Source of the DNA: Strigops habroptila
Lineage: Eukaryota > Chordata > Aves > Psittaciformes > Psittacidae
Direction of reading: 5' to 3'
Assembly (NCBI RefSeq): GCF_004027225.2
Contig: NC_044284.2
Location: 42,084,420-42,148,419, forward strand
Length of the DNA stretch: 64,000 nt
Part shown: positions 25,801 to 64,000 of the stretch, in pieces
How the letters are laid out: the number at the start of each line of letters is the position of its first letter
Numbering within the stretch: position 1 is the first letter of the stretch
Made by a program: the position numbers and the translations under genes
The notes under the pieces: generated by a model
What the model was told of the DNA's origin: nothing
Database searches by the model: none
Seen by the model: only the letters and a program-made list of their open reading frames with translations

Positions 25801-28800
25801 GGACAGGAAACTATATGTCTTGATGGAAAAAAATATGTGTTCTCTGCCTCCAAAACCAGTAGTTACTCAAATTATGATTCATACTTGCCTCACCAAAGAA
25901 ATGCTAACTTACAGACAGAATTAATCCACTCTTTACTATATAATTCAATACTCTTCATGAGGGACTGTAGTGATAGAACATGTGGCAATGGGTTCAAATT
26001 TAAACACGGGAGATTAAGGTTAGATATAAGGAAGAAATTCTTTACTGTGAGGGTGGTGAGGCACTGGAACAGGCTGCCCAAGGAAGTTTTGAATGCTCCA
26101 TCCCTGGCAGTGTTCAAGGCCAGATTGGTCAAGGCCTTCAGCGACATGGTCTAATGGAAGGTGTCCCTGCCCATAGTAGGGGGGTTGGAACTAGATGATC
26201 ATAAGGTCCTTTGCAACCCAAACCATTCTATGATTCTATCCAATGATAAATATTCATAGCATTTGCATCTGCCTAAATATGATGACTACTTAAACCACTG
26301 TTAATCCTTCTCCCTCCCCCCCCCTTTTTTTTTTAAACAAGCCTACAGAAAGCACTAAGATTAGCAGTTGATGAGAAGATGCTGCAACTCCCAATATTCA
26401 CAGGACTCAGTGAAGAAAGGCAATGTACTAAGTGAAAATCCAGAAACCTTCTTCCCACACACATCTCAAGGCAAGTAAAAGACTTTGATGAAGTCTATAT
26501 CTAAACACCTGCTTGCCCAAATTCCCAGCTTGCTCTTCTTTGAAAGTATGTTCATCTCCTAATTCACCCAAAAAGACTCGGGTGCTAATTTTGATACTGT
26601 TCTCTAAAAGTATCTCATACCAAGTGTGGCTACATCACCAAGTAAAAACCTCAAGAACTCTTCTGTTTCAGACCTAAGTAGTTGACTTCATATAAGTAAC
26701 CAAAACTATTAAAAAGATCCTCCATTTCCCCATCCTCAAGCATGTTAAACAGCTGTCTATGGCATGATATGACTACTACTTCAGCCTTGCTAAAGAGCTT
26801 TGACTTTTTGCAAACCTTTCCCCCTTTCCTCTCACAGAAGAAGAGAGGTGAAGGTACAGAGAAAGCAAGAGAAAATCCTCACAAGATGACACTATACTGT
26901 GTTCTCACCACACAATTATGCGTAGTATAGACAACAAAACCAAGCCAAACTCACTCCACTCCGGCGGGATGTCATGGCCACAACAGGAGACCACTGGTTG
27001 GTTCGAGGGTTGTATCTCTCCGCACTGCTGAGCTCTGTTGTATCATCTCTGCCTCCCACAGCATAAATCATGTCTTGGTATACTGCACAGCCCAGGTGCT
27101 TCCTCCTTGTCCCCATAGGAGCAATTGTGTGCCAGCGGTTCTCCTGGGGATTGTAGCGTTCCACTGCAGAGGAAATGACACAGTGGCAGTTAGCACTTTC
27201 GAACCTGCATCCAAAGCATTGTTCAATCTGTGAAGATGCTACAATTTGCACACACCAAAAATACGATGAACCAGTTTGTTATCTCTCACTCTAATGCTTT
27301 TGTTCTACACAACTCTTGCTATTATCTCTCCTGTCTCCAGCCCTACAGTCAATCACATTCAGCATCTTCACCCAAGAGGGAGCTGGTAATGCTACAAACT
27401 GACCTGCATAATCATCTTGCAGTAATTTTACCTTTTGCAATTTCCTTCCTACAGCAGAAGAGGGTTACTGCAGGAAAAAAAAAGATGTGCTTGCAACTGT
27501 TATGCAAATGATCAAAGTATTGTATTCAGGACGCACTGCCAAATGCAGCATCAAGAAAAAAAAGGCAACATGCAAGCCTGGAGAGTGAATTACTGTATGG
27601 CAAAAATTGTATTTTAAGAAGAAAAAAACACTACAAACTCATCATTAAGATAATCAAAAGTCATCTGGGGACATAAAGGACAAACAGGACCACAACAAGA
27701 GCTGACTGCAGTTAAGGGAAAGGATTGGCATACCAGTATTGAGAGGAGAAGTTCCATCAGAGCCTCCCACAGCATAAAGGAAGCCCCCTAGCACAGCCAC
27801 TGCAACTCCCAGGCGCCTGGTGCTCATAGAAGCCACTCGAGTCCATTTGTTTTCTTTGGGATCATACCTGGCAGAAGAATAAACAACAAAGCTTAGTGAA
27901 GTGTCGACATCTTCACAAAGGGGCAGGAACCTTATTCTCTTCAAACAAAAATCCCTGTAAGATCTGTACAGCAACTGCTCATCTGCATCAATTGCACCTT
28001 CTAAGAGACCTTCTTCTCCTTGTGCCCCACCTTTTTTAATTAGAAAGTACCTTTCTACAATGTTTAGACAAGAGACACCATCCTGGCCACCCACAGCATA
28101 GAGGTAGCCTCCAAGAACTGCTACTCCAACACTGGTCCTGCAGGTACTAGTGGGGGCCACATCACTGCTCCACTGATTGGTCTTCGGATCATACCTAGAA
28201 AAAACACACCAAACAGCATGAATTCCTTGTCTAGGTATGCTTCAGACTCTCATGCTTGGGAACTACTAAGGCAGTGAAACTTGCGTATCTTGAGCTTAAA
28301 CTGCAACACAGCTATTTGTAAGTTGGACAAAACCTCTGAAGTGATATAATGCATCCAATACATGTTATTCCAGGGATGTTCAAACTCCAGCATAAGATGA
28401 TTCAAACTGAAGATCAAAGGTTCAGGTTCATAAGAGAGCAGGTTACCAGAGACTGGCTGACATGTGGTACCTTGCTTCTATGCAAAGAGCAGCAGCCAGA
28501 GTTACTCTGCTGTATGTTTTCTGCAGTTCACACAAGAACTCAGCCAGCACTAGGACCTGCATTTCAAGATAAAAGATGGAAGAGCCAGATGGACTTGGGA
28601 ATCCAGAGACAAGGAAATATGGTGCATAGAAGAAAAGTGCAGGACACAGGAGATGCAAGGCTAGGGTTATGATTTGGGAACCTGGGAGTATGCAAGGAGA
28701 CATGTGGGAAGGAAAGGCTCAAGGAGAAAATAGATATTTGTATACGTCACTATATTTGTTACAGAGCCAAGATTTATAGTACTAGGAGTGCCTAAGTCTT

Positions 28801-45161: not shown

Positions 45162-46839
45162 CTGATCCCAAAAGAAAAAAAGAACAAAAAAGGGTCATAT
45201 TCTGAAGGAAGAGAACCTTCTTTCCTCTCTTCATTCTGGCTCTAGGACAACAGAACTGACCACATCCATGGACTAATATGCCTTCAAGCTCTTAACCAGC
45301 TATAAAATCCACAGCCTAGATTAATGATGTCTTGGATTGCAGAGAATAAAACAGGAGAAAATATCAACATTAAATTTCACTACAGCTGCATAATGATTCT
45401 TTAGGCAAATGGAATACACACATCATAAAGTCAATAAACTGTCTGCCTCCCTGAATCCTTAAAATTGTTCTACCAAAGGAAAAAGTATCTCATGTAACAG
45501 GGTGTTCACTCTCAGAGCCAGGAGGTATCTCTCCTTCATACATTTACCAGATTTAAGGCAGGCTGGCACCTAATAAACAGCACTGCGCTGCTCAACAGCT
45601 ACACTGCAGAAACTATCTGATGCAAGATAAAACTTGTGTCTGGAAACTGAAGATAACTATGTGCCCCAGAGGTAAAAGGGATGCTAATAATGGTACTACA
45701 TCTGCAAAGATTAATGATGCTGCCTAATGCTCACCACACATCCACTCCAAATATCCATTTTCTGAGGAAAATAACAGTTTGCAACTGCACAGGTCTTCCA
45801 TGTTCAACCACTAACTTTTAATTCTAATGCAGATCAACCCTTTTTTCAAAGGTATTAATCATCTAAATTTTATTTTTAATGTTGATGCAATTAAATACAA
45901 ATTCAATTCAATCATTATTTAAAGCAATAAGGCTAACTTCCATCATATAGTAAAAAAACAGAAGGGTGTTCTGCTTCCATACTGACTTCCTCACATCCAT
46001 AACTGATGTGAGAAATCAGAAACTAGTGAAACTATAGGAAAAGCAATGACAGAATGAGACTGAATAACTCTGACAATAAAGAGAAGTAGGATTTAAATTA
46101 GGAAAACTTAAATTCTGGAAGAATAAAGTAATTTTTGGAAGACTGAAATTGTCTCATTGAAAGCCCTGCATCCAACAGCAACAAAATACTTTCTGGCACA
46201 ATTCAAATTTAACTACAAAATAAATATTTGGCTACATGAAGAAGCAAGTTATTTTATATGCAACATTCTGTAGGTACATTATCACAGAAACACAAACACA
46301 GCAGTTTGCCAGTTAATGAAAAATAAGCTCAGATTTGCTGTCTTCCACAGTTGCAAATTACTCAGGTTCATCGCTTCCTGCAAATAAAGCAAGCCGATTC
46401 CTCCTGGTTAGGGCACTGCATACCCATTTAAATCCGAACTATGACTGCCTGGCCTCTCCCCGACTAGACTCTGCTACCCCTCCTCTCGCCAGCATCGAGG
46501 GGCTTCCTGGAAAAGCGAGCTTCACTGCACGCACCCACACGGACCACCACCTGCCCCACTGCAAAGCAGCATCTTCACAACTGCCCGTGTGCTGGAACAC
46601 ATGCAAAGGCCGTTCACAGCATTCTGCACATGCCACGAAATGTGGACGATACCATTCTTAGACCCCTGATTGCATCAGATTTAAAACCCCTTAAAACCGC
46701 ATTAAAAGTCATGAGGACAAAAAACACATTTTGGACTAGGGTCCTCGATTTAGTGCTCTCCACGGGGCAGCAACTGGACGAAACGACAACCTTCCCAGCA
46801 ATGCGTAGGCATGGCTTTCTATCACCCACAGGCGCAAGT

Positions 46840-47575
46840 AGGTTTCCCGGGACGTACGGCTGCTCCTCCCGGACGAGCACGGCTCCCTCCTGCCCCTTCC
46901 CCCGGAGACCTAACGCCAACCCGCGGCGCGCAGGGCACACCGCCAACCGACAGCAAGCGGCGGGCAGGGGCGTGGACCCCGACCCGCAGGAGAAGCCGAC
47001 GCGAGCCGAGAAGCCGGGCGCGCTACACCTGGCCCGCCGCTTCCCCACCGGCCCGGGAGCGAATGGCCCAGGCCGCGCTGCAGCGGCGGCCTGCCGAGGC
47101 AGCGCGACACGCACCGCTGCCAGCCATGCCCCGCCACCCCAACGGCACCGGGAGAGGGCAGCGCACCCGGCCCCGCACCGCGGCGCCAAAGGGGCCCTCA
47201 GCACGCGCGCTGCAACGAGAAGCGGTCCCCAGCCCAACGCCGCCGCACGGTCCGCGCCGCGCTCACTCACGCCGGGCGCCGGGTCCGCCGCCGAGCCGCG
47301 GTCCCCCAACAGCCGCGCCGAACGCAGCGCACCCTGCGGGCCCCTCCCCACCGGCAGGAAATGATCCGACCCCGCGCGACGGCCCCGCCAACCGCGGCTG
47401 CCGCGCGCCGGGCCGCGCCCGCCCCTTCCGTCCCTCCCGCGGCAGCGGCCCCGGAACGGCGGGGCCTAGCGCAGCCCGCCGCTGGCTACGACCTCTCCCA
47501 GAGCTGGCCGTGTGTCGGCACGGCCCGTGCCAGCCGGTATATCCGTGACGGCCGGGTGCATCTGCCGCCGTCATG
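46840..47575 (-). promoter_or_regulatory. KLHL20: CpG island and promoter of KLHL20, with noncoding exon 1
   Basis: This roughly 740-bp stretch is extremely GC- and CpG-rich, about 2 kb upstream of the first coding exon (45101-45161 including 5' UTR; its acceptor is at 45,162). On the minus strand a strong splice donor GTGAGT follows position 47,271, so the noncoding first exon probably ends there and the start site lies about 47.3-47.5 kb. Long open frames on both strands here are by-products of GC content. Confidence 0.7.
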
Positions 47576-47756
47576 AGGCATGGACTCTGCGGAGGGCCCA
47601 GGTGGCTACCCATGTCCCACCGGCTAATCAGTGCCCCAGAGATATACCCATACCCTGGAGGTTCTAAATAGGAGCACATGTACGAGTGAGGCGGCAGCGG
47701 ACGACGCATGCCAGGCTTCCATTGGCCATTTCCCTCCAGGAATAGTTACGGACTAA

Positions 47757-47838: not shown

Positions 47839-47939
47839 GTAATATATTCATGCACGCACCAGTGACTTCGCTTCGCCACTTACTACTCCCTCACCCGCCA
47901 CAACCCCCCCACGGCCACGGCCAGCCAGAGCGCCCTCAC

Positions 47940-48260
47940 TGCGTGCCTTGCTGGGGAAGGGCCGTTCCCCCACGTGCCTGCCGGTGGCAGAGGCCGTGAA
48001 AGCCGGTTCCAGACCGTTTGGGCGCTCCCTCTGGTGCACGCTCCCTCACAGCACGGCCTCCCCCGGCCGTGCTCGCTGCCCTTTTGCCGCCATGTTGAAC
48101 AGTTCAAGCCTCGCGTAAGGTTAAACTCATGGGCAGCTGTGCGGGAAGTCCCCGTGAGGAGGGACAGGGACACGCGAGAAGGAAGCGAGCCGGCACCAAC
48201 TCATCTCGCAGCTGAAGCTGGAGCGCAGCAGCCCACCAGTGCCATCTACCGGGGCCTTCC
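47940..48260 (+). promoter_or_regulatory. Promoter-like CpG block of array unit 1
   Basis: CpG-dense stretch with CACGTG, a perfect YY1 core CCGCCATGTTG (48,087-48,097) and, 17 bp later, a good splice donor CGC|GTAAGG. This looks like a short noncoding first exon feeding gene copy A. It lies about 0.5 kb from the KLHL20 CpG island and points the other way. Confidence 0.5.
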
Positions 48261-48899
48261 AGGAGCCTCATGTGGGCACAAGAGGGTCGTGCTGGTGACT
48301 AAGGAGGCCGACAGCACGAAAGCCTTTGCATTTCTTAATGCTGAAAACACTTTAAAATCCACGGAATGGCTGAGCTTAGAAGGCAGCTGCTCTGGACGCC
48401 AGTTCGTCCAACGCTCTGTTCAGGCACGGTTCAGGCTATGGTCAAAGTGCATGGATTTTGGGCCTTCCTCTTAACATGGGCTGCCGCTTGGTCCCCAAGA
48501 GGATTTCGAGCTGAACCGTGTCACGGCTGCCCCGCTGCTGAACGCAGCCTGCATGGAGTCTGAGCACAGCTCCTTCTCGCAGAGAAGCGGAGAGCACAGC
48601 CCAAATGACCTGGGGCAGAGTCCCGCTCCACTGCTGGGCTCAGTGTCTGCTGGCAGGCACAGCGGTGAGAGCAGCAGGCTTCAAAATCCACCTGCGGGGG
48701 TCCTCCCCAGCTCCGCTTCAGCCGTCACCGCCTGCAGGGCGCGCAGGGAAGGGTTTTGTGACATCACAGAGCCTTGTCTGACATCAGCAGCCCTTCCAAG
48801 TGCAGACACACGGGGTGACCACTCAGTCCTGCTGGTCGCTGCCTGACAGACAGAAGCCAGCTCGTGCACTGTGATTTTCCTCCCTTGGGAGAAACCAAG

Positions 48900-50219
48900 A
48901 TGAGGCTCCACATGGTTCTCTCCCTGACCATGGCACTCTGCATGGCGGTTCTGTTCCCCGGTGGCCTTGGCCTTTGCAACCACCACCACTGCATCATAGC
49001 CGGGAGGGAAGACTTTCCTGAAAACTGGTGCGGCTGCCTCTTGTCACTGAGAGCACGACTGCCGAATGGAGCAGCAGCATTGGGTCTCCGCAGCCGCCAT
49101 GGCAGGGTGCGAGTCAGGACAGCCGTCATTCCTGAGGGCCAGAAGCAACCACCCGTCGTTGCAGAGGGCATGGCTGCTGAATGGAGCAGGAGCATTGGTC
49201 GTCGCAGCCCCCAGAGCCGGGTCCGGGTCAGGATGGCTGTCATTCCTGAAAGCCAAGAAGCAACCACCCATTGTTGCAGAGAGCATGGCTGCCGAATGGA
49301 GCAGCAGCACTGGTCTTCGTAGCCCCCAGAGCTGGGTCCGGGTCAGGGCAGGCGTCACTCCTGAGGGCCTGAAGATCATGGCCTCTCACCTGCCCTTCCC
49401 TCTGGGCCAGCAGGGGCAGATGACCTGGCTGCTTTGCCACCCCTGGATAACCGTGTGGCTGCTCTCTATGGCTGGGACTGCCCTTGGCCTCTGGAGAAAT
49501 GTGAGGAGACACAAGGGACAGGTAAGCAGTCGAGATCAGTCACACAAAGGGGGCCAGGTTGTGGGGAGCAAAAAACCGCAACAGCCTTGGCCAGAAAGGC
49601 TTTGCAATGAACAAACAAAATCCATATTGGATAAGAAAGCTTCAGTAGGCCCCGAGAGGTCCTCTGCCTCTTCACCAAGGACATGCCAAAGCGCAGGGCC
49701 AAAACCCTCCAAGAGACCCCAGCACAACACAGGTCCCACGGAGGTTTTCTATGTGCTACCTTGGGCAGTCCTGCAAGGCTGGACTTCTTCCAGAGGAAGC
49801 CAAGCCCAGCAGGGCACTTTTTAGCTCCACCGGGCCTCACGTGCTTCTTTGTGCCCCAGCCCTGTCATTTCCAGGGAAGGAGACAGACGGCCTCGTCTTT
49901 CATGGCAACAGGCTACTGGAAAAAGAGAAGCTTGAGATATTACAGATTGCTCTGCCGGCTGAAGACCGCCAATGGAGTGATGCTCAGGTGCCTGCGGCGT
50001 GTCTCCGACCAACGCCAGAAAGTGATTGAGTACAAGCACTTGAAGGAGAAGGCACGAGTAAACGATAAGAAGCGGAGCGCCTGCCCTAGCTCCCCATGCA
50101 ACTCCAGCCAGCATGTGTCCCAGCCGATTGACAACATTAAAGGCAGTGGTACAAGGGAGTGCTGTTGTCTGTGTGGGGTGGGACGTGAGGCAGGGGAGAA
50201 CTGGCATCCGTGGCTGTGA
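48900..50219 (+). pseudogene. Array gene copy A1: frame-disrupted copy of the repeat-bearing membrane-protein gene
   Basis: Same layout as the copies at 53,924 and 58,948: start ATG 48,900, exon end 49,521 with donor GTAAGC, second coding exon from about 49,873, and ATTAAA at 50,136-50,141. Relative to those copies it has a missing C near 49,025, an extra G near 49,081, an extra C near 49,253 and a missing C near 50,120. The frame therefore shifts in the extracellular part, and the tail runs on to a stop at 50,219. Two more single-base indels (near 49,602 and 50,262) lie outside the exons. Substitutions against copy 2 are very few, so real decay and base-calling error are both possible. Confidence 0.6.
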
Positions 50220-50518
50220 GGTGCCCCATGGGTGTCCAATCCCAGGAAGGGAGGCCCACGTCTGGCAGGATGCCCTTGTCCCTGTGATGTTCCAGGTTGG
50301 TGCCTATGTCCCACTGAGGTACCTGGTACATGCCCACATCCCGTGAGGTGTGTGGTTCTTCCTTCCCATGTCCCATAACGGGGCAGTGGCCAGTGCCTGC
50401 CCATGACCCATTCGGTTCCTTGGGTTTTAGGACCTCCAAGGCTGGTGTGAGGGCATCACACCAGGAAGAGGGGCAGGTGTTAGGAAGAGGGTGGATGGCA
50501 ACTCCAGCCGGAGCATCC

Positions 50519-50648
50519 AGTTGCCCAGAGAAGAAGTGGATGCCCCATCCCTGGAAGCGTTTAAGGCCAGGTTGGACAGGGCTTTGAGCAACCTACTCTA
50601 AAAGAAGGTGTCCCTGCCTGTGGCAAGGGGGTTGGCTCTAGATGATCC
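50519..50648 (+). mobile_element. CR1 fragment inside array unit 1
   Basis: TTGCCCAGAGAAGAAGTGGA, GCCCCATCCCTGGAAG, TTTAAGGCCAGGTTGGACAG and GTGTCCCTGCCTGTGGCAA are CR1 3'-end landmarks, ending near GGCTCTAGATGATCC. It was carried along in every unit. Confidence 0.85.
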
Positions 50649-51074
50649 ATGTTCCTGCAGGGTGGCCACAGCCAATGGGTGACCATGTCCTGGTTGGTTG
50701 CTCATGTCCACCTGGCACAAAAGCCAACAGGAATTTGGCACCTCTCTGGTGACAGACTTTGCGGAGGATCCCTTTCTCCACCCTCCCAAAGATGATGCCT
50801 GGGCCCACTGACATCCCAAAGGCGTCCCTTGGGTCAGGATGCCATCCAGGGGAACTCCTCGAGGTTGCGTGTGTGCGTGTGTGTTTCCTTTCTTGTTCTC
50901 TTTGTTAAAAATCAAAGCTTATCTCAGCTCACGTGGGGCTGGAGAGCAATGGAGCATTGAGCATCTAAGGTCTTAAGCTTTTAACCATGCAGAACAAAAA
51001 CAATGCTCTGGAAAAGCTGGGAATCATGAGAGAGAGCAAGGCTAAAGGCCCCTGCTCCAGGCTTCACGGGAGCA

Positions 51075-51898
51075 GGGCCTCTTCCTGACCATGACACTAT
51101 GCATGGTAGTTCTGTTCCCCAGTGGCCTTGGCCTTTGCAACCACCACCACTGCATCACAGCCGGGAGGGATGCCGGCTGTGTCTGAAGCAGCTGCCTCTT
51201 GTCACTGAGAGCATGGCTGCTGAATGGAGCAGCAGCATTGGTCTTCACAGCCCCCACAGCTGGGTCGGGCTCAGGACGGCCATCATTCCTGAGAGCCAAA
51301 AGCAACTGCCCATTGTTGCGGAGAGCATGGCTGCTGACTGGAGCAGCAGCATTGGTCTCTGCAACCCCCACAGCTGGCTGCGGGTCAGGATGGCCATCAT
51401 TCCTGAAGGCCTGAAGATCATGGCCTCTTACTTGTCCTGCCCTCTGGGCCATTAGGGGCAGATGGCCTGGCCGCTTTGCCAGCCCTGGGTAACCGTGTGG
51501 CTGCTCTCTATGGCTGGGACTGCGCTTGGCCTCTGGAGAAATGTAAAGAGATCCAAGGGACAGGTGAGCAGAAGAAGGGGCTGGGTTGTGGGGAGCAGAA
51601 AACTGCAACAGCCTTGGCCGAGAAGGCTTGCTATGAACAAACAAAATCCATATTGGGCAAGAAAGCTTCAGTAGGCCCCGAAGCTTTCTTCCTCTGCCTC
51701 TTCACCAAGGACGTGCCAATGTGCAGGGCCAAAACCCTCCAAAAGACCCCAGCACAACACGGGGAAGGAAGGTGCTGGGCTTTCTTGTCAGATTCCTGCC
51801 TGGTGGGGCGCACAACCATTTGTGTCTCGGTACCCAGCAGTAATGCAAGGGAGAAAGCAGCAGGCCTCTACAGGATGAAATTTAAGTTGGGTCAGTCA
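51075..51898 (+). pseudogene. Degenerate paralogue A' of the array gene, unit 1
   Basis: About 2.16 kb downstream of copy A, the same signal-peptide segment (LCMVVLFPSGLGLCNHHHC), repeat segments, membrane span (WVTVWLLSMAGTALGLW) and exon-end donor (GTGAGC after 51,563) recur. A TGA follows the signal region, and a TAG falls before the membrane span. Only two 38-residue repeats remain, against three in copy A. The intron stays similar up to about 51,870, and then homology stops. It reads as an inactive older duplicate inside the unit. Confidence 0.7.
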
Positions 51899-51899
51899 T

Positions 51900-52900
51900 G
51901 AAAGAGACGCAGTGAAATGCCTGCTGCAAAGCAAGGCTTTTTGGCGCATCCAGTTCCCTCTCTTGAGCAGAAGTGACTGTGGCTGCAGATGTGCATGATT
52001 TCCTAATCTGGTAGCTGGATGGCAGCCAGGGGAGAAAGCCAGCCTACTAAGGACCATTGGGGACCCCTGTGGATGCTGGCCTCAGCTTTAATCCCCTCCA
52101 GTGGTCAGATCTGAGGAGCATTTCATTATTCCTCCCCAGAGATGAACAACAGGTAGTACCCGTCCCAGGTGTAACAGAATCCATCTCTTTGAGAAAAGAG
52201 AGGCAGCGGTAGCTCACAAGGATGCAGCAAGACTGTGAGGCTCGGTTGCGGCGGGGTGCTGATCCTAGCTGTGGTCACAGAGGCCAGAGGCAAGTTCTTC
52301 ACCAGAGCAGAACTGCAGCACAGTCAGGAGAGGAGGGACCCACAAAGGCCTGGTGCACCTCTCTTCTGTAGCCATGAAGGAAAATGCAAATTTTGAGGAA
52401 AGGAACTGCATTCAGCCTGGGACACCCGTTACTCCTGTTAGCTTGAGGGAAGGCCACAGCAGTCTCTCGTGAAAGCACACCTGACTGCTGTGGTCTGTAA
52501 TCCTGTAGCAGCTCCCCAGACGCAGGACTCGTAATGCGTCCATTCCTCACCACCGTCTCTTGCACAGATACCTCTGGTTGGCACAAGAGACCCATATGCT
52601 CGCATGTGGCAGTGACAACTGCTGAGGGGAACCGCAAGATCCCCACAGTACCGGGCAGAGCGCATCAGCATTGGATGCAGCTCCCACAGACCTCCTGTGC
52701 ACCCCCAAAATTGGCCCTACCAATGGCCCTCACCTCTCATCTCAGAGTCCACCCTCAAAGCATGCTGCGGCAGTTCACCATCTCTGCGGCGATGATGACA
52801 AACTCCCTCGCACAAACCCCTGTCTGTCCACAGACCAGTGGCTGTGGAGATCTGAGCCTACAGTATGCCTGAAGACAGCCACGCATCCCCGTCCCACCAC
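51900..52900. other. Inter-gene spacer of unit 1
   Basis: About 1 kb of unique-looking sequence between degenerate copy A' and the next CpG block. An open frame begins at 52,671 and runs to 53,498 across the unit junction, but it has no recognisable domain and overlaps the CpG block and putative first exon. I treat it as incidental. No further repeat or gene was recognised. Confidence 0.5.
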
Positions 52901-52904
52901 TTTG

Positions 52905-53284
52905 CTGCTGCCTCAGCCGCCACAGCCCCCCACCACCACCACGGCCAGCCAGCGTGCCCTCACTGCGTACCCTGCTGGGGAAGGACCGTTCCCCCACGTG
53001 CCTGCCGGTGGCAGAGGCCGTGAAAGCCGGTTCCAGACCGTTTGGGCGCTCCCTCTGGTGCACGCTCCCTCACAGCACGGCCTCCCCCGGCCGTGCTCGC
53101 TGCCCTTTTGCCGCCATGTTGAACAGTTCAAGCCTCGCGTAAGGTTAAACTCATGGGCAGCTGTGCGGGAAGTCCCCGTGAGGAGGGACAGGGACACGCG
53201 AGAAGGAAGCGAGCCGGCACCAACTCATCTCGCAGCTGAAGCTGGAGCGCAGCAGCCCACCAGTGCCATCTACCGGGGCCTTCC
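52905..53284 (+). promoter_or_regulatory. Promoter-like CpG block of array unit 2
   Basis: Copy of the block at 47,940, with YY1 core CCGCCATGTTG at 53,111-53,121 and donor GTAAGG from 53,139. A plausible acceptor for the next exon is GCCTGACAG at 53,865-53,873, 50 bp before the predicted start codon. Confidence 0.5.
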
Positions 53285-53923
53285 AGGAGCCTCATGTGGG
53301 CACAAGAGGGTCGTGCTGGTGACTAAGGAGGCCGACAGCACGAAAGCCTTTGCATTTCTTAATGCTGAAAACACTTTAAAATCCACGGAATGGCTGAGCT
53401 TAGAAGGCAGCTGCTCTGGACGCCAGTTCGTCCAACGCTCTGTTCAGGCACGGTTCAGGCTATGGTCAAAGTGCATGGATTTTGGGCCTTCCTCTTAACA
53501 TGGGCTGCCGCTTGGTCCCCAAGAGGATTTCGAGCTGAACCGTGTCACGGCTGCCCCGCTGCTGAACGCAGCCTGCATGGAGTCTGAGCACAGCTCCTTC
53601 TCGCAGAGAAGCGGAGAGCACAGCCCAAATGACCTGGGGCAGAGTCCCGCTCCACTGCTGGGCTCAGTGTCTGCTGGCAGGCACAGCGGTGAGAGCAGCA
53701 GGCTTCAAAATCCACCTGCGGGGGTCCTCCCCAGCTCCGCTTCAGCCGTCACCGCCTGCAGGGCGCGCAGGGAAGGGTTTTGTGACATCACAGAGCCTTG
53801 TCTGACATCAGCAGCCCTTCCAAGTGCAGACACACGGGGTGACCACTCAGTCCTGCTGGTCGCTGCCTGACAGACAGAAGCCAGCTCGTGCACTGTGATT
53901 TTCCTCCCTTGGGAGAAACCAAG

Positions 53924-55154
53924 ATGAGGCTCCACATGGTTCTCTCCCTGACCATGGCACTCTGCATGGCGGTTCTGTTCCCCGGTGGCCTTGGCCTTTG
54001 CAACCACCACCACTGCATCATAGCCGGGAGGGAAGACTTTCCTGAAAACCTGGTGCGGCTGCCTCTTGTCACTGAGAGCACGACTGCCGAATGGAGCAGC
54101 AGCATTGGTCTCCGCAGCCGCCATGGCAGGGTGCGAGTCAGGACAGCCGTCATTCCTGAGGGCCAGAAGCAACCACCCGTCGTTGCAGAGGGCATGGCTG
54201 CTGAATGGAGCAGGAGCATTGGTCGTCGCAGCCCCCAGAGCCGGGTCCGGGTCAGGATGGCTGTCATTCCTGAAAGCAAGAAGCAACCACCCATTGTTGC
54301 AGAGAGCATGGCTGCCGAATGGAGCAGCAGCACTGGTCTTCGTAGCCCCCAGAGCTGGGTCCGGGTCAGGGCAGGCGTCACTCCTGAGGGCCTGAAGATC
54401 ATGGCCTCTCACCTGCCCTTCCCTCTGGGCCAGCAGGGGCAGATGACCTGGCTGCTTTGCCACCCCTGGATAACCGTGTGGCTGCTCTCTATGGCTGGGA
54501 CTGCCCTTGGCCTCTGGAGAAATGTGAGGAGACACAAGGGACAGGTAAGCAGTCGAGATCAGTCACACAAAGGGGGCCAGGTTGTGGGGAGCAAAAAACC
54601 GCAACAGCCTTGGCCAGAAAGGCTTGCAATGAACAAACAAAATCCATATTGGATAAGAAAGCTTCAGTAGGCCCCGAGAGGTCCTCTGCCTCTTCACCAA
54701 GGACATGCCAAAGCGCAGGGCCAAAACCCTCCAAGAGACCCCAGCACAACACAGGTCCCACGGAGGTTTTCTATGTGCTACCTTGGGCAGTCCTGCAAGG
54801 CTGGACTTCTTCCAGAGGAAGCCAAGCCCAGCAGGGCACTTTTTAGCTCCACCGGGCCTCACGTGCTTCTTTGTGCCCCAGCCCTGTCATTTCCAGGGAA
54901 GGAGACAGACGGCCTCGTCTTTCATGGCAACAGGCTACTGGAAAAAGAGAAGCTTGAGATATTACAGATTGCTCTGCCGGCTGAAGACCGCCAATGGAGT
55001 GATGCTCAGGTGCCTGCGGCGTGTCTCCGACCAACGCCAGAAAGTGATTGAGTACAAGCACTTGAAGGAGAAGGCACGAGTAAACGATAAGAAGCGGAGC
55101 GCCTGCCCTAGCTCCCCATGCAACTCCAGCCAGCATGTGTCCCCAGCCGATTGA
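53924..55154 (+). CDS. Candidate single-pass membrane protein with 38-residue repeats, array copy A2 (intact frame)
   Basis: Not recognised as any known family. Exon 53,924-54,544 (207 codons) ends CAG|GTAAGC; exon 54,897-55,154 (85 codons) follows TTTCCAG, and the junction is phase 0. An in-frame acceptor 15 bp earlier is also possible. The product is about 292 residues. Residues 1-26 form a hydrophobic signal peptide, then CNHHHC. Three 38-residue repeats span about 49-86, 87-124 and 125-162 (core AEWSSSIGLRSPQSWVRVR). A membrane span lies at about 176-198 (ITVWLLSMAGTALGLW). A basic tail (RNVRRHKGQ, YWKKRSLRYYRLLCRLK, then KVIEYKHLKEKARVNDKKR) completes it. The start has A at -3. ATTAAA (55,159-55,164) follows the stop by 4 bp, with a GT-rich run about 25-45 bp further on. 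It is possibly a TEX50 counterpart by position only. Coding status is inferred. Confidence 0.6.
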
Positions 55155-55158
55155 CAAC

Positions 55159-55164
55159 ATTAAA
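55159..55164 (+). terminator. Poly(A) signal of array copy A2
   Basis: ATTAAA lies 4 bp after the stop, with TGCTGTTGTCTGTGTGGGGT downstream as a GU-rich element. Equivalent sites are at 50,136-50,141 (unit 1) and 60,183-60,188 (unit 3). Confidence 0.5.
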
Positions 55165-55542
55165 GGCAGTGGTACAAGGGAGTGCTGTTGTCTGTGTGGG
55201 GTGGGACGTGAGGCAGGGGAGAACTGGCATCCGTGGCTGTGAGGTGCCCCATGGGTGTCCAATCCCAGGAAGGGAGGCCCACGTCCTGGCAGGATGCCCT
55301 TGTCCCTGTGATGTTCCAGGTTGGTGCCTATGTCCCACTGAGGTACCTGGTACATGCCCACATCCCGTGAGGTGTGTGGTTCTTCCTTCCCATGTCCCAT
55401 AACGGGGCAGTGGCCAGTGCCTGCCCATGACCCATTTGGTTCCTTGGGTTTTAGGACCTCCAAGGCTGGTGTGAGGGCATCACACCAGGAAGAGGGGCAG
55501 GTGTTAGGAAGAGGGTGGATGGCAACTCCAGCCGGAGCATCC

Positions 55543-55672
55543 AGTTGCCCAGAGAAGAAGTGGATGCCCCATCCCTGGAAGCGTTTAAGGCCAGGTTGGA
55601 CAGGGCTTTGAGCAACCTACTCTAAAAGAAGGTGTCCCTGCCTGTGGCAAGGGGGTTGGCTCTAGATGATCC
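55543..55672 (+). mobile_element. CR1 fragment inside array unit 2
   Basis: Identical by eye to the fragment at 50,519-50,648, offset by 5,024 bp. It arrived by duplication of the unit and not by a new insertion. Confidence 0.85.
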
Positions 55673-56098
55673 ATGTTCCTGCAGGGTGGCCACAGCCAAT
55701 GGGTGACCATGTCCTGGTTGGTTGCTCATGTCCACCTGGCACAAAAGCCAACAGGAATTTGGCACCTCTCTGGTGACAGACTTTGCGGAGGATCCCTTTC
55801 TCCACCCTCCCAAAGATGATGCCTGGGCCCACTGACATCCCAAAGGCGTCCCTTGGGTCAGGATGCCATCCAGGGGAACTCCTCGAGGTTGCGTGTGTGC
55901 GTGTGTGTTTCCTTTCTTGTTCTCTTTGTTAAAAATCAAAGCTTATCTCAGCTCACGTGGGGCTGGAGAGCAATGGAGCATTGAGCATCTAAGGTCTTAA
56001 GCTTTTAACCATGCAGAACAAAAACAATGCTCTGGAAAAGCTGGGAATCATGAGAGAGAGCAAGGCTAAAGGCCCCTGCTCCAGGCTTCACGGGAGCA

Positions 56099-56922
56099 GG
56101 GCCTCTTCCTGACCATGACACTATGCATGGTAGTTCTGTTCCCCAGTGGCCTTGGCCTTTGCAACCACCACCACTGCATCACAGCCGGGAGGGATGCCGG
56201 CTGTGTCTGAAGCAGCTGCCTCTTGTCACTGAGAGCATGGCTGCTGAATGGAGCAGCAGCATTGGTCTTCACAGCCCCCACAGCTGGGTCGGGCTCAGGA
56301 CGGCCATCATTCCTGAGAGCCAAAAGCAACTGCCCATTGTTGCGGAGAGCATGGCTGCTGACTGGAGCAGCAGCATTGGTCTCTGCAACCCCCACAGCTG
56401 GCTGCGGGTCAGGATGGCCATCATTCCTGAAGGCCTGAAGATCATGGCCTCTTACTTGTCCTGCCCTCTGGGCCATTAGGGGCAGATGGCCTGGCCGCTT
56501 TGCCAGCCCTGGGTAACCGTGTGGCTGCTCTCTATGGCTGGGACTGCGCTTGGCCTCTGGAGAAATGTAAAGAGATCCAAGGGACAGGTGAGCAGAAGAA
56601 GGGGCTGGGTTGTGGGGAGCAGAAAACTGCAACAGCCTTGGCCGAGAAGGCTTGCTATGAACAAACAAAATCCATATTGGGCAAGAAAGCTTCAGTAGGC
56701 CCCGAAGCTTTCTTCCTCTGCCTCTTCACCAAGGACGTGCCAATGTGCAGGGCCAAAACCCTCCAAAAGACCCCAGCACAACACGGGGAAGGAAGGTGCT
56801 GGGCTTTCTTGTCAGATTCCTGCCTGGTGGGGCGCACAACCATTTGTGTCTCGGTACCCAGCAGTAATGCAAGGGAGAAAGCAGCAGGCCTCTACAGGAT
56901 GAAATTTAAGTTGGGTCAGTCA
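56099..56922 (+). pseudogene. Degenerate paralogue A' of the array gene, unit 2
   Basis: Copy of 51,075-51,898 with the same stops and the same two repeats. It was therefore already inactive before the 5-kb unit was duplicated. Confidence 0.7.
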
Positions 56923-57925
56923 TGAAAGAGACGCAGTGAAATGCCTGCTGCAAAGCAAGGCTTTTTGGCGCATCCAGTTCCCTCTCTTGAGCAGAAGTGA
57001 CTGTGGCTGCAGATGTGCATGATTTCCTAATCTGGTAGCTGGATGGCAGCCAGGGGAGAAAGCCAGCCTACTAAGGACCATTGGGGACCCCTGTGGATGC
57101 TGGCCTCAGCTTTAATCCCCTCCAGTGGTCAGATCTGAGGAGCATTTCATTATTCCTCCCCAGAGATGAACAACAGGTAGTACCCGTCCCAGGTGTAACA
57201 GAATCCATCTCTTTGAGAAAAGAGAGGCAGCGGTAGCTCACAAGGATGCAGCAAGACTGTGAGGCTCGGTTGCGGCGGGGTGCTGATCCTAGCTGTGGTC
57301 ACAGAGGCCAGAGGCAAGTTCTTCACCAGAGCAGAACTGCAGCACAGTCAGGAGAGGAGGGACCCACAAAGGCCTGGTGCACCTCTCTTCTGTAGCCATG
57401 AAGGAAAATGCAAATTTTGAGGAAAGGAACTGCATTCAGCCTGGGACACCCGTTACTCCTGTTAGCTTGAGGGAAGGCCACAGCAGTCTCTCGTGAAAGC
57501 ACACCTGACTGCTGTGGTCTGTAATCCTGTAGCAGCTCCCCAGACGCAGGACTCGTAATGCGTCCATTCCTCACCACCGTCTCTTGCACAGATACCTCTG
57601 GTTGGCACAAGAGACCCATATGCTCGCATGTGGCAGTGACAACTGCTGAGGGGAACCGCAAGATCCCCACAGTACCGGGCAGAGCGCATCAGCATTGGAT
57701 GCAGCTCCCACAGACCTCCTGTGCACCCCCAAAATTGGCCCTACCAATGGCCCTCACCTCTCATCTCAGAGTCCACCCTCAAAGCATGCTGCGGCAGTTC
57801 ACCATCTCTGCGGCGATGATGACAAACTCCCTCGCACAAACCCCTGTCTGTCCACAGACCAGTGGCTGTGGAGATCTGAGCCTACAGTATGCCTGAAGAC
57901 AGCCACGCATCCCCGTCCCACCACT
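56923..57925. other. Inter-gene spacer of unit 2
   Basis: Duplicate of the spacer at 51,900-52,900. No gene was recognised. Confidence 0.5.
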
Positions 57926-57928
57926 TTG

Positions 57929-58308
57929 CTGCTGCCTCAGCCGCCACAGCCCCCCACCACCACCACGGCCAGCCAGCGTGCCCTCACTGCGTACCCTGCT
58001 GGGGAAGGGCCGTTCCCCCACGTGCCTGCCGGTGGCAGAGGCCGTGAAAGCCGGTTCCAGACCGTTTGGGCGCTCCCTCTGGTGCACGCTCCCTCACAGC
58101 ACGGCCTCCCCCGGCCGTGCTCGCTGCCCTTTTGCCGCCATGTTGAACAGTTCAAGCCTCGCGTAAGGTTAAACTCATGGGCAGCTGTGCGGGAAGTCCC
58201 CGTGAGGAGGGACAGGGACACGCGAGAAGGAAGCGAGCCGGCACCAACTCATCTCGCAGCTGAAGCTGGAGCGCAGCAGCCCACCAGTGCCATCTACCGG
58301 GGCCTTCC
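57929..58308 (+). promoter_or_regulatory. Promoter-like CpG block of array unit 3
   Basis: Third copy, with YY1 core at 58,135-58,145 and donor GTAAGG from 58,163. One substitution against unit 2 (GGGCCG for GGACCG near 58,007) is visible. Confidence 0.5.
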
Positions 58309-58947
58309 AGGAGCCTCATGTGGGCACAAGAGGGTCGTGCTGGTGACTAAGGAGGCCGACAGCACGAAAGCCTTTGCATTTCTTAATGCTGAAAACACTT
58401 TAAAATCCACGGAATGGCTGAGCTTAGAAGGCAGCTGCTCTGGACGCCAGTTCGTCCAACGCTCTGTTCAGGCACGGTTCAGGCTATGGTCAAAGTGCAT
58501 GGATTTTGGGCCTTCCTCTTAACATGGGCTGCCGCTTGGTCCCCAAGAGGATTTCGAGCTGAACCGTGTCACGGCTGCCCCGCTGCTGAACGCAGCCTGC
58601 ATGGAGTCTGAGCACAGCTCCTTCTCGCAGAGAAGCGGAGAGCACAGCCCAAATGACCTGGGGCAGAGTCCCGCTCCACTGCTGGGCTCAGTGTCTGCTG
58701 GCAGGCACAGCGGTGAGAGCAGCAGGCTTCAAAATCCACCTGCGGGGGTCCTCCCCAGCTCCGCTTCAGCCGTCACCGCCTGCAGGGCGCGCAGGGAAGG
58801 GTTTTGTGACATCACAGAGCCTTGTCTGACATCAGCAGCCCTTCCAAGTGCAGACACACGGGGTGACCACTCAGTCCTGCTGGTCGCTGCCTGACAGACA
58901 GAAGCCAGCTCGTGCACTGTGATTTTCCTCCCTTGGGAGAAACCAAG

Positions 58948-60178
58948 ATGAGGCTCCACATGGTTCTCTCCCTGACCATGGCACTCTGCATGGCGGTTCT
59001 GTTCCCCGGTGGCCTTGGCCTTTGCAACCACCACCACTGCATCATAGCCGGGAGGGAAGACTTTCCTGAAAACCTGGTGCGGCTGCCTCTTGTCACTGAG
59101 AGCACGACTGCCGAATGGAGCAGCAGCATTGGTCTCCGCAGCCGCCATGGCAGGGTGCGAGTCAGGACAGCCGTCATTCCTGAGGGCCAGAAGCAACCAC
59201 CCGTCGTTGCAGAGGGCATGGCTGCTGAATGGAGCAGGAGCATTGGTCGTCGCAGCCCCCAGAGCCGGGTCCGGGTCAGGATGGCTGTCATTCCTGAAAG
59301 CAAGAAGCAACCACCCATTGTTGCAGAGAGCATGGCTGCCGAATGGAGCAGCAGCACTGGTCTTCGTAGCCCCCAGAGCTGGGTCCGGGTCAGGGCAGGC
59401 GTCATTCCTGAGGGCCTGAAGATCATGGCCTCTCACCTGCCCTTCCCTCTGGGCCAGCAGGGGCAGATGACCTGGCTGCTTTGCCACCCCTGGATAACCG
59501 TGTGGCTGCTCTCTATGGCTGGGACTGCCCTTGGCCTCTGGAGAAATGTGAGGAGACACAAGGGACAGGTAAGCAGTCGAGATCAGTCACACAAAGGGGG
59601 CCAGGTTGTGGGGAGCAAAAAACCGCAACAGCCTTGGCCAGAAAGGCTTGCAATGAACAAACAAAATCCATATTGGATAAGAAAGCTTCAGTAGGCCCCG
59701 AGAGGTCCTCTGCCTCTTCACCAAGGACATGCCAAAGCGCAGGGCCAAAACCCTCCAAGAGACCCCAGCACAACACAGGTCCCACGGAGGTTTTCTATGT
59801 GCTACCTTGGGCAGTCCTGCAAGGCTGGACTTCTTCCAGAGGAAGCCAAGCCCAGCAGGGCACTTTTTAGCTCCACCGGGCCTCACGTGCTTCTTTGTGC
59901 CCCAGCCCTGTCATTTCCAGGGAAGGAGACAGACGGCCTCGTCTTTCATGGCAACAGGCTACTGGAAAAAGAGAAGCTTGAGATATTACAGATTGCTCTG
60001 CCGGCTGAAGACCGCCAATGGAGTGATGCTCAGGTGCCTGCGGCGTGTCTCCGACCAACGCCAGAAAGTGATTGAGTACAAGCACTTGAAGGAGAAGGCA
60101 CGAGTAAACGATAAGAAGCGGAGCGCCTGCCCTAGCTCCCCATGCAACTCCAGCCAGCATGTGTCCCCAGCCGATTGA
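58948..60178 (+). CDS. Candidate single-pass membrane protein with 38-residue repeats, array copy A3 (intact frame)
   Basis: Same two-exon model as copy A2, shifted by 5,024 bp: exons 58,948-59,568 and 59,921-60,178, phase 0 junction, about 292 residues, poly(A) signal 60,183-60,188. The only coding difference seen is in the third repeat, where GTC-ACT-CCT in A2 is GTC-ATT-CCT here (Thr to Ile), matching the VIP of the other repeats. The signal peptide, the three repeats, the span and the basic tail are all intact. Two intact copies with no frame break suggest recent duplication, some constraint, or both. It is not a recognised family. Confidence 0.6.
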
Positions 60179-60566
60179 CAACATTAAAGGCAGTGGTACA
60201 AGGGAGTGCTGTTGTCTGTGTGGGGTGGGACGTGAGGCAGGGGAGAACTGGCATCCGTGGCTGTGAGGTGCCCCATGGGTGTCCAATCCCAGGAAGGGAG
60301 GCCCACGTCCTGGCAGGATGCCCTTGTCCCTGTGATGTTCCAGGTTGGTGCCTATGTCCCACTGAGGTACCTGGTACATGCCCACATCCCGTGAGGTGTG
60401 TGGTTCTTCCTTCCCATGTCCCATAACGGGGCAGTGGCCAGTGCCTGCCCATGACCCATTCGGTTCCTTGGGTTTTAGGACCTCCAAGGCTGGTGTGAGG
60501 GCATCACACCAGGAAGAGGGGCAGGTGTTAGGAAGAGGGTGGATGGCAACTCCAGCCGGAGCATCC

Positions 60567-60696
60567 AGTTGCCCAGAGAAGAAGTGGATGCCCCATCCCT
60601 GGAAGCGTTTAAGGCCAGGTTGGACAGGGCTTTGAGCAACCTACTCTAAAAGAAGGTGTCCCTGCCTGTGGCAAGGGGGTTGGCTCTAGATGATCC
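60567..60696 (+). mobile_element. CR1 fragment inside array unit 3
   Basis: Third duplicate of the 130-bp CR1 piece, 5,024 bp from the second. Confidence 0.85.
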
Positions 60697-61122
60697 ATGT
60701 TCCTGCAGGGTGGCCACAGCCAATGGGTGACCATGTCCTGGTTGGTTGCTCATGTCCACCTGGCACAAAAGCCAACAGGAATTTGGCACCTCTCTGGTGA
60801 CAGACTTTGCGGAGGATCCCTTTCTCCACCCTCCCAAAGATGATGCCTGGGCCCACTGACATCCCAAAGGCGTCCCTTGGGTCAGGATGCCATCCAGGGG
60901 AACTCCTCGAGGTTGCATGTGTGCGTGTGTGTTTCCTTTCTTGTTCTCTTTGTTAAAAATCAAAGCTTATCTCAGCTCACGTGGGGCTGGAGAGCAATGG
61001 AGCATTGAGCATCTAAGGTCTTAAGCTTTTAACCATGCAGAACAAAAACAATGCTCTGGAAAAGCTGGGAATCATGAGAGAGAGCAAGGCTAAAGGCCCC
61101 TGCTCCAGGCTTCACGGGAGCA

Positions 61123-61945
61123 GGGCCTCTTCCTGACCATGACACTATGCATGGTAGTTCTGTTCCCCAGTGGCCTTGGCCTTTGCAACCACCACCACTG
61201 CATCACAGCCGGGAGGGATGCCGGCTGTGTCTGAAGCAGCTGCCTCTTGTCACTGAGAGCATGGCTGCTGAATGGAGCAGCAGCATTGGTCTTCACAGCC
61301 CCCACAGCTGGGTCGGGCTCAGGACGGCCATCATTCCTGAGAGCCAAAAGCAACTGCCCATTGTTGCGGAGAGCATGGCTGCTGACTGGAGCAGCAGCAT
61401 TGGTCTCTGCAACCCCCACAGCTGGCTGCGGGTCAGGATGGCCATCATTCCTGAAGGCCTGAAGATCATGGCCTCTTACTTGTCCTGCCCTCTGGGCCAT
61501 TAGGGGCAGATGGCCTGGCCGCTTTGCCAGCCCTGGGTAACCGTGTGGCTGCTCTCTATGGCTGGGACTGCGCTTGGCCTCTGGAGAAATGTAAAGAGAT
61601 CCAAGGGACAGGTGAGCAGAAGAAGGGGCTGGGTTGTGGGGAGCAGAAAACTGCAACAGCCTTGGCCGAGAAGGCTTGCTATGAACAAACAAAATCCATA
61701 TTGGGCAAGAAAGCTTCAGTAGGCCCCGAAGCTTTCTTCCTCTGCCTCTTCACCAAGGACATGCCAATGTGCAGGGCCAAAACCCTCCAAAAGACCCCAG
61801 CACAACACGGGGAAGGAAGGTGCTGGGCTTTCTTGTCAGATTCCTGCCTGGTGGGGCGCACAACCATTTGTGTCTCGGTACCCAGCAGTAATGCAAGGGA
61901 GAAAGCAGCAGGCCTCTATAGGGTGAAATTTAAGTTGGGTCAGTC
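61123..61945 (+). pseudogene. Degenerate paralogue A' of the array gene, unit 3, at the array's right edge
   Basis: Copy of the A' paralogue with the same stops. Homology to units 1 and 2 ends abruptly after GTTGGGTCAGTC near 61,945. The last 30 bp already carry two substitutions (CTATAGGGTGAAA for CTACAGGATGAAA), so the right breakpoint lies in the A' second intron/exon region. Confidence 0.7.
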
Positions 61946-63454: not shown

Positions 63455-63660
63455 GGGGTGTGTGTGCGGGTCGTGTTTCCTTTCTTGTTCTCTTGTTAAA
63501 AATCAAAGCTTATCTCAGCTCACATGGGGCTGGAGAGCAATGGAGCATCGAGCATCTAAGGTCTTAAGCTTTTAACCATGTAGAGCAAAAAGAATGCTCT
63601 GGAAAAGTTGGGAATCATCAGAGAAAGCAAGGTTAAGGGCCCCTGCTCCAGGCTTCACGG
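63455..63660 (+). repeat. Diverged fragment of the array unit (second part)
   Basis: From GTGTGTGCGGGTCGTGTTTCC through the TCTTAAGCTTTTAACCATGT region to GGCTTCACGGG it matches about 50,869-51,070 of unit 1 at roughly 95% by eye. It stops just before the A' signal-peptide segment. It is an older partial copy beyond the main array. Confidence 0.85.
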
Positions 63661-64000
63661 GATGCCTATGAAACTTTGTTTTCAATGGGGCAAGTCAGAC
63701 CCAAAAGCATGGGCCAAAGGATCTTGCTGGCTGCCATCCTACGTCCCCTTCACTGGCTGCCACCAAGCCTCTGGCCCAGCCCTGCTGCCCCTTGCTCTCC
63801 AGGCATCCCATGACCTGCAGTCCAATCCCACCAGGCTCTCCTGGGCCACAAGTGCTGCAGCACTAGCAGGTTAGGGGAGACTAGGTCTCACCCTGTGCAA
63901 GGGAGGGCACTTCCTGGGCAAACCTGGGGATGACTGCAGGGACACTGTCCTCCAGCAGGACACAATGAAAAGGACACAGACTAGGTGACAGCATGCTTTG
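63661..64000. other. No feature recognised
   Basis: Moderately GC-rich sequence without a convincing exon or repeat up to the window edge. Confidence 0.4.

What the first reader, a model, noticed from the sequence alone, without database searches (positions are those of the whole stretch)
47888..61945. Recent tandem amplification of an undescribed two-exon membrane-protein gene next to KLHL20
Seen: a 5,024-bp unit is repeated 2.8 times and carries promoter-like CpG block, gene, poly(A) signal and a dead paralogue. Two copies (53,924 and 58,948) have fully open, phase-compatible exons predicting signal peptide, three 38-residue repeats, one membrane span and a long basic tail. Inference: a lineage-specific, possibly expressed, copy-number-variable gene family. 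I know of no bird gene described with this architecture, but I could not search.
Basis: partly seen in the sequence, partly recalled or inferred. Interest (0 to 1): 0.88.

Follow-up and report, generated by a model that had tools for sequence, protein, structure and literature searches.

The report
Fast-evolving bird membrane-protein gene, tandemly triplicated
In the kakapo genome a small, fast-changing gene for a repeat-bearing membrane protein sits in three near-identical tandem copies beside KLHL20; relatives exist in eagles, penguin, ibis, stork, crane, pigeon and cormorant, and what the protein does is unknown.

Summary
In detail: a 5,024-bp unit repeats 2.8 times (47,888-61,945), and copies 2 and 3 have open exons that join in phase (292 aa). 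The window is kakapo. NCBI already predicts copy 3 (LOC115611879) and copy 1 (LOC115612217) as uncharacterized proteins. The gene is not kakapo-specific: relatives occur in eagles, penguin, ibis, stork, crane, pigeon and cormorant, with 1 to 5 copies of the 38-residue repeat. Nine of nine full models chosen for alignment run across the exon junction without a gap and stay open, which a neutral simulation makes very unlikely. No named hit outside birds came from three protein searches; no convincing Pfam match.

Two corrections. Apart from its diverged left edge, the 'broken' first copy differs from both others only by six single-base indels and no substitution, which looks like consensus error, not decay. 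The protein changes at about the rate of its own intron, so selection is relaxed or diversifying.

Best reading: a coding, fast-evolving single-pass membrane protein gene, head to head with KLHL20, recently amplified or homogenised in kakapo. A male-germline role, perhaps related to mammalian TEX50, is a hypothesis I could not test. Expression and true copy number are untested.

The parts
47888..52911 (+). tandem unit A (5,024-bp period); its left edge (to about 47,950) is diverged from the B/C counterpart, the rest is near identical
52912..57935 (+). tandem unit B
57936..61945 (+). tandem unit C, partial (0.8 unit)
48900..49521 (+). copy A exon 1, frame broken by three of the six single-base indels that separate A from B and C
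   Evidence: NCBI LOC115612217 is a model of this copy
49875..50131 (+). copy A exon 2 (one single-base indel near its end)
53924..54544 (+). copy B exon 1: signal peptide-like start, three 38-aa repeats, probable membrane span; 207 codons, open
54897..55154 (+). copy B exon 2: basic tail, 85 aa plus stop, phase 0
55159..55164 (+). polyA signal ATTAAA, copy B (A: 50,136; C: 60,183)
58948..59568 (+). copy C exon 1 (one residue differs from copy B)
59921..60178 (+). copy C exon 2; the copy C protein equals NCBI LOC115611879
51079..51763 (+). dead paralogue in unit A (exon 1 and part of the intron)
56103..56787 (+). dead paralogue in unit B: 84% identical to the live gene over 56,231-56,787, in-frame stop, deletions
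61127..61811 (+). dead paralogue in unit C
53414..53473 (+). possible upstream exon: 50% match to the start of the Buteo buteo model (also 48,390 and 58,438)
53783..53810 (+). pair of TGACATCA octamers (CRE-like) 114-141 bp before the ATG (also 48,759 and 58,807)
46800..47600 (.). CpG island upstream of KLHL20; the start of the pigeon model P0022 matches 47,253-47,519 (+)
27657..28241 (-). KLHL20 kelch exon
63493..63662 (+). older 94% fragment of the unit (copy of 50,902-51,071)
   Evidence: family D8

Best explanation
A real protein-coding bird gene, so far only an automatic gene prediction. It makes a single-pass membrane protein: signal peptide, a short ectodomain built of 38-residue repeats (1 to 5 in different birds), one membrane span, and a basic cytoplasmic tail encoded by a second exon. 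It lies head to head with KLHL20. In kakapo its 5,024-bp unit, which also carries a dead half-copy, stands three times in tandem after recent unequal crossing-over or gene conversion acting on an older duplication. Shown here: unit, open frames, splice signals, relatives with the same order of parts, repeat-number change, and a protein rate close to that of the adjacent intron. Inferred: topology; that the repeats form an extracellular contact surface which evolves by repeat gain and loss under diversifying or weak selection; that copy A is intact in the bird. The tissue I think most likely is the male germ line (my estimate about 0.4), because of the fast evolution, the paired CRE-like boxes and the nearby mammalian sperm gene TEX50; none of these is a direct test.
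For: Array and frames. NCBI models of copies C and A. Relatives in other birds. The nine models put into alignment A4 (of 15 named ones found) run across the kakapo exon junction without a gap. Unspliced ORFs from unnamed contigs leave the family sequence at that same point. Neutral simulation (assumed one indel per ten substitutions): 0 of 4,000 lineages stayed free of stops and frameshifts at each of 0.10, 0.12 and 0.15 substitutions per site, 2.2-5.3% free of stops alone; at 0.06 and 0.08 about 13 and 2 of 4,000 stayed open; kakapo is 37-54% identical to the other eight models, which is below the 56% simulated at 0.15. Exon 1 aligns to kakapo in its frame in 7 of 7 read-through ORFs, while the intron aligned best in another frame in 4 of 7. 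Repeats. Linkage to KLHL20 in pigeon. CRE-like pair.
Against: Codon-position bias is weak: live against dead copy dN/dS 0.77, changes 23/24/26 by position; repeats against each other 0.36-0.60. Exon 2 in the right frame (67/85) is no more conserved than noncoding frames (64/74, 41/55, 32/38) between kakapo and P0010. So purifying selection is not demonstrated, and the intron may itself be constrained. Relatives come from protein databases, which favour intact frames. Two further pigeon models (P0022, P0023) leave the frame inside the span region, and the Buteo model lacks the usual signal-peptide start. The simulation ignores CpG effects and uses one assumed indel rate. No RNA evidence was available. 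Hydropathy of the span is moderate (1.39 in kakapo), and in 3 of 9 proteins checked the strongest window after residue 100 lies in the tail instead.
Confidence: 0.68

Rival explanations
1. Noncoding locus: a KLHL20-divergent transcript in GC-rich, stop-poor DNA whose long open frame is incidental; the array is an ordinary segmental duplication.
For: Weak codon-position bias. Right-frame exon 2 no more conserved than noncoding frames. The intron is also open for 75 codons after exon 1 in six unspliced ORFs.
Against: Nine full models in six bird lineages stay open across both exons, against under 1 in 4,000 per neutral lineage at 0.10-0.15 substitutions per site. Repeats are gained and lost as whole 38-codon units.
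Confidence: 0.12
2. It is the bird counterpart of mammalian TEX50, a sperm membrane protein needed for acrosome integrity, with repeats added in birds.
For: TEX50 is listed with KLHL20 and ANKRD45 in one horse genomic region (passage of a gene table, order not given). [quoted passage not shown] That TEX50 is small with a single span is recalled.
Against: No named mammal or reptile protein came up in three protein searches. No ankyrin domain (as in ANKRD45) was seen on the + strand of 64-114 kb, where TMCO1-like and ALDH exons lie; of the minus strand only 84-94 kb was scanned. No TEX50 sequence was at hand.
Confidence: 0.15
3. The array is partly an assembly artefact: the number of units, or copy A, is a misassembly of fewer (or more) real units.
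For: In the unit body copy A differs from both others by six single-base indels and no substitution, the mark of unpolished long-read consensus.
Against: B and C differ by seven transitions and no indel, A shares alleles with each, the left edge of A is a diverged older version of the unit edge, and a 94% fragment lies beyond C.
Confidence: 0.15

Closest known systems
NCBI 'uncharacterized protein' models LOC115611879 and LOC115612217 (Strigops), LOC115349058 (Aquila), LOC142035436 (Buteo), LOC135580089 (Columba), LOC135314121 (Phalacrocorax)
   Same: Same gene or relatives with the same order of parts: 38-aa repeats, span, junction and tail; the usual signal-peptide start in all but the Buteo model and LOC115612217
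   Different: Only automatic predictions; repeat number varies; no paper of the library names any of these six LOC ids
TEX50 (mammalian testis expressed 50)
   Same: Gene in the KLHL20 region; a membrane protein (from passages)
   Different: Sequence relation not shown; 38-aa repeats not known for TEX50 (recall); domains found beyond the array differ from ANKRD45
Fast-evolving, repeat-bearing reproductive surface proteins (general kind, recalled)
   Same: Protein changes at about intron rate; repeat gain and loss; tandem copies
   Different: No tissue, partner or binding evidence here

Membership tests
Uncharacterized bird gene family of LOC115611879 | 38-aa repeats, span, gap-free exon junction, basic second exon | tested here: met
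TEX50 | Sequence homology to mammalian TEX50 | not testable with these tools
   No TEX50 sequence at hand; no named mammalian hit (searches limited to shared 5-residue words)
TEX50 | Position beside KLHL20 | tested here: inconclusive
   Array upstream of KLHL20 in kakapo; horse region lists TEX50 and KLHL20 without order; ANKRD45-like domains not seen on the + strand of 64-114 kb
TEX50 | Expression in testis, presence on sperm | not testable with these tools
   no RNA or proteome data
Any Pfam-A family | Profile score above the curated cut-off | tested here: not met
   0 families; 0 for four relatives, one below its cut-off for P0025; only weak scattered matches among 8 members, best E 0.0077, cut-offs not shown there
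Any protein of known structure | Sequence match in the PDB | tested here: not met
   0 matches; 3 matches, best E 0.7

The most novel reading that the evidence does not exclude
A bird germ-cell surface protein under diversifying selection, derived from the same ancestor as mammalian TEX50, that gains and loses 38-residue ectodomain repeats and, in kakapo, whole gene copies; copy number could differ among individuals of a species with poor fertility (recalled).
Probability: 0.08. Interest if true: 0.75.

Novelty: new member of a known kind. Interest (0 to 1): 0.42.

Why it matters
It joins a row of automatic 'uncharacterized' predictions into one defined bird gene family with a testable architecture, shows repeat-number and copy-number change at one locus, and gives a named candidate for a fast-evolving surface protein in a critically endangered bird. 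If expression is germline, copy number could be compared with fertility in population genomes of kakapo (such data are recalled, not looked up here).

Tried and rejected
A viral relative was sought in viral contigs with P0001: 38 stretches matched a pattern, none encodes a relative. Rfam on 46-64 kb: no family. PDB and Pfam: nothing usable. The idea that the gene is confined to this lineage was rejected. Decay of copy A as a natural pseudogene was judged unlikely. Genome searches with spacer, upstream and downstream DNA of the unit did not complete; only the live gene's 1-kb query was, giving 7 places: 6 in this array and one weak match over 79 bases on another contig. Papers: TEX50 or KLHL20 (395 papers, 20 listed), TEX50 (13), 'Testis expressed 50' (3), six LOC ids (0), kakapo with tandem duplication and copy number (1; passages seen, nothing on this locus in them), CREM/spermatid/TGACATCA (listing with abstract starts), bird-specific/KLHL20/avian/testis (listing with abstract starts). 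PMC7609060 held neither term in its main text.
Full report
Observation. The repeat finder gives three in-register copies at 5,024-bp spacing between 47.9 and 61.9 kb, and a 94% fragment further on at 63,493-63,662. In copies B and C exon 1 (207 codons) and exon 2 (85 codons plus stop) are open and flank an intron that begins GTAAGC and ends TTTCCAG, phase 0. All three copies have ATTAAA just after the stop. Residues 40-153 are three 38-residue repeats. The tail is strongly basic. Each unit also holds a broken second copy of exon 1, 84% identical in DNA to the live one; in unit B it has a 4-bp deletion, one repeat missing and an in-frame stop, and exon-2 protein matched only the three live copies.

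Where it is. A search of 5.8 billion proteins with the copy B translation returned Strigops habroptila LOC115611879, which equals my translation of copy C, and LOC115612217, which carries copy A's own frame changes. So the window is kakapo, and NCBI's pipeline already predicts proteins here. To the left lies KLHL20 on the minus strand (solved KLHL20, E 5.7e-87), then a mitochondrial aspartyl-tRNA ligase exon, neighbours that I recall from mammals. To the right, on the plus strand, no domain passed its cut-off from 64 kb until a TMCO1-like exon near 103.5 kb and aldehyde dehydrogenase exons up to about 113.7 kb; the minus strand was scanned only for 84-94 kb.

How the copies differ. Over the shared body of the unit, B and C differ by seven base changes, all transitions, and by no indel. 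Copy A has no base change of its own there but six single-base insertions or deletions, in or beside short runs of one base; three lie in exon 1 and one near the end of exon 2. Natural decay should leave substitutions as well, so I read these as consensus errors of the assembly; copy A may be intact in the bird. Copy A shares its base with C at two of the seven sites and with B at the other five, and its left edge, up to about 47,950, is a clearly diverged version of the unit edge. That fits an older duplication later homogenised by unequal exchange or conversion. At a bird rate of about 2 per 10^9 sites per year (recalled), 7 changes in about 4,000 bases mean some 0.4 million years, or less signal if conversion is at work.

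Relatives. The first search named kakapo, crane, white-tailed eagle and ibis. Two profile searches added golden eagle, crested eagle, buzzard, harpy eagle, Humboldt penguin, pigeon, cormorant and stork. All 15 named models are birds, and none carries a functional name that fits this part; the crane model is fused to a reverse-transcriptase domain and the harpy model to another sequence. No named chicken, songbird, reptile or mammal appeared, but these searches need shared 5-residue words and cannot prove absence, and the species of the unnamed contigs are unknown. I put nine models that look complete into alignment A4 (kakapo, penguin, four hawks and eagles, ibis, pigeon, cormorant) and left out six: kakapo copy A (P0002), crane P0003, pigeon P0022 and P0023, harpy P0025 and stork P0026. 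In the nine, the alignment crosses the kakapo exon junction without a gap. Eight of the nine share the usual start; the Buteo model has another first exon, and the cormorant model has an extension in front. Full repeats number 3 in kakapo and golden eagle, 2 in penguin, pigeon, cormorant and three other hawks and eagles, 1 in ibis and 5 in crane. Crane repeats 1 and 2, and 4 and 5, differ by two residues each, so repeat gain is recent there.

Is it coding? In a neutral simulation from the kakapo exons, assuming one indel per ten substitutions, 0 of 4,000 lineages stayed free of stops and frameshifts at each of 0.10, 0.12 and 0.15 substitutions per site, and 2.2-5.3% stayed free of stops alone; at 0.06 and 0.08 about 13 and 2 of 4,000 stayed open. 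Kakapo is 37-54% identical to the other eight models, lower than the 56% simulated at 0.15. Six lineages have full open models. Databases favour intact frames, so this is strong but not clean evidence. Exon 1 matched kakapo in its own frame in the 7 of 7 read-through ORFs that I compared for exon 1 and intron (P0004, P0005, P0006, P0008, P0015, P0018, P0022), whereas the intron aligned best in a different frame in 4 of 7; for the other three only a weak same-frame intron alignment was listed. P0022 and P0023 (pigeon) leave the frame in the span region, unlike the other pigeon model P0016 (by eye). Against protein constraint: changes between live and dead copies are spread 23/24/26 over codon positions, and kakapo exon 2 against P0010 (67/85) is no better conserved than noncoding frames (64/74, 41/55).

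Rate. One search compared 28 pairs of unspliced ORFs. Twelve pairs are distant and have their introns in the same frame (all pairs among P0004, P0005, P0006, P0008, P0015 and P0018 except the three among P0004, P0005 and P0008): in 12 of 12 both the start and the span are less conserved than the translated intron. Six of these 12, those among P0004, P0006, P0015 and P0018, were tested: Fisher p 0.0006 to 0.064. Pairs share members, so they are not independent. The three close pairs (90-98%) tell nothing. Thirteen pairs include kakapo or P0020; in 12 of them the introns are out of frame with each other, so that intron identity is low for that reason alone, and in the thirteenth, kakapo-P0020, the span (22/54) is below the intron (37/59). 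With the intron frame matched, however, kakapo against P0006, P0008, P0015 and P0018 has exon 1 slightly above the intron in 4 of 4 (98/174 and 60/109; 89/138 and 59/108; 99/169 and 53/108; 65/136 and 43/108). Overall the protein changes at about the rate of its intron: relaxed or diversifying selection, or a constrained intron. Diversifying selection is possible, not shown.

Transcription. The pigeon model P0022 begins with a stretch that matches kakapo 47,253-47,519 inside the CpG island upstream of KLHL20 (61.6 bits; best of 500 shuffles 48.1), although this low-complexity stretch also gives weaker matches in other frames and CpG-rich places; the Buteo start matches 53,414-53,473 in the unit (23.9 bits; best of 500 shuffles 21.6). 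This suggests that the family sits beside KLHL20 in pigeon too and that an upstream exon exists in some transcripts. Two TGACATCA octamers 12 bp apart lie 114-141 bp before each ATG; the pair occurs 3 times in the window, once per unit, 0.10 expected at up to two mismatches. The three are copies of one event, and the motif was picked after looking. That such CRE-like boxes mark spermatid promoters is recalled; CREM's role in spermatids I saw only in abstract starts of a listing.

TEX50. [quoted passage not shown] that paper is not held. This is a lead for tissue and ancestry. I had no TEX50 sequence, so I do not file the gene as TEX50.

Verdict. A real array and a real, broader bird gene family; probably coding, fast-evolving, and not described in the papers that I could search.

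Noticed in passing
window 52,028-52,096 and 57,052-57,120 (+): A 23-residue stretch matches (69.6%, E 3e-4 to 7e-4) a middle part of the harpy eagle model P0025, in which this gene's tail is fused to a different-looking sequence; no further significant match of that partner was found in the 134 kb examined.
   Followed up: partly
P0003 (Grus japonensis model): Crane exon 1 is fused in its database model to a reverse-transcriptase domain (PF00078), perhaps a gene-model artefact over a transposable element.
   Followed up: no
L011-L012 (window about 103-114 kb): TMCO1-like and aldehyde dehydrogenase exons follow on KLHL20's 5' side in kakapo, suggesting a synteny break relative to mammals, where ANKRD45 is recalled to lie there.
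   Followed up: partly
window 54,545-54,896: The intron of this gene is about as well conserved among birds, when translated, as the exons; it may carry a regulatory element.
   Followed up: partly
G000:C2:18059880-18059958 (L007): A 79-bp, 78% match to a part of the intron elsewhere in the genome, perhaps a short repeat.
   Followed up: no
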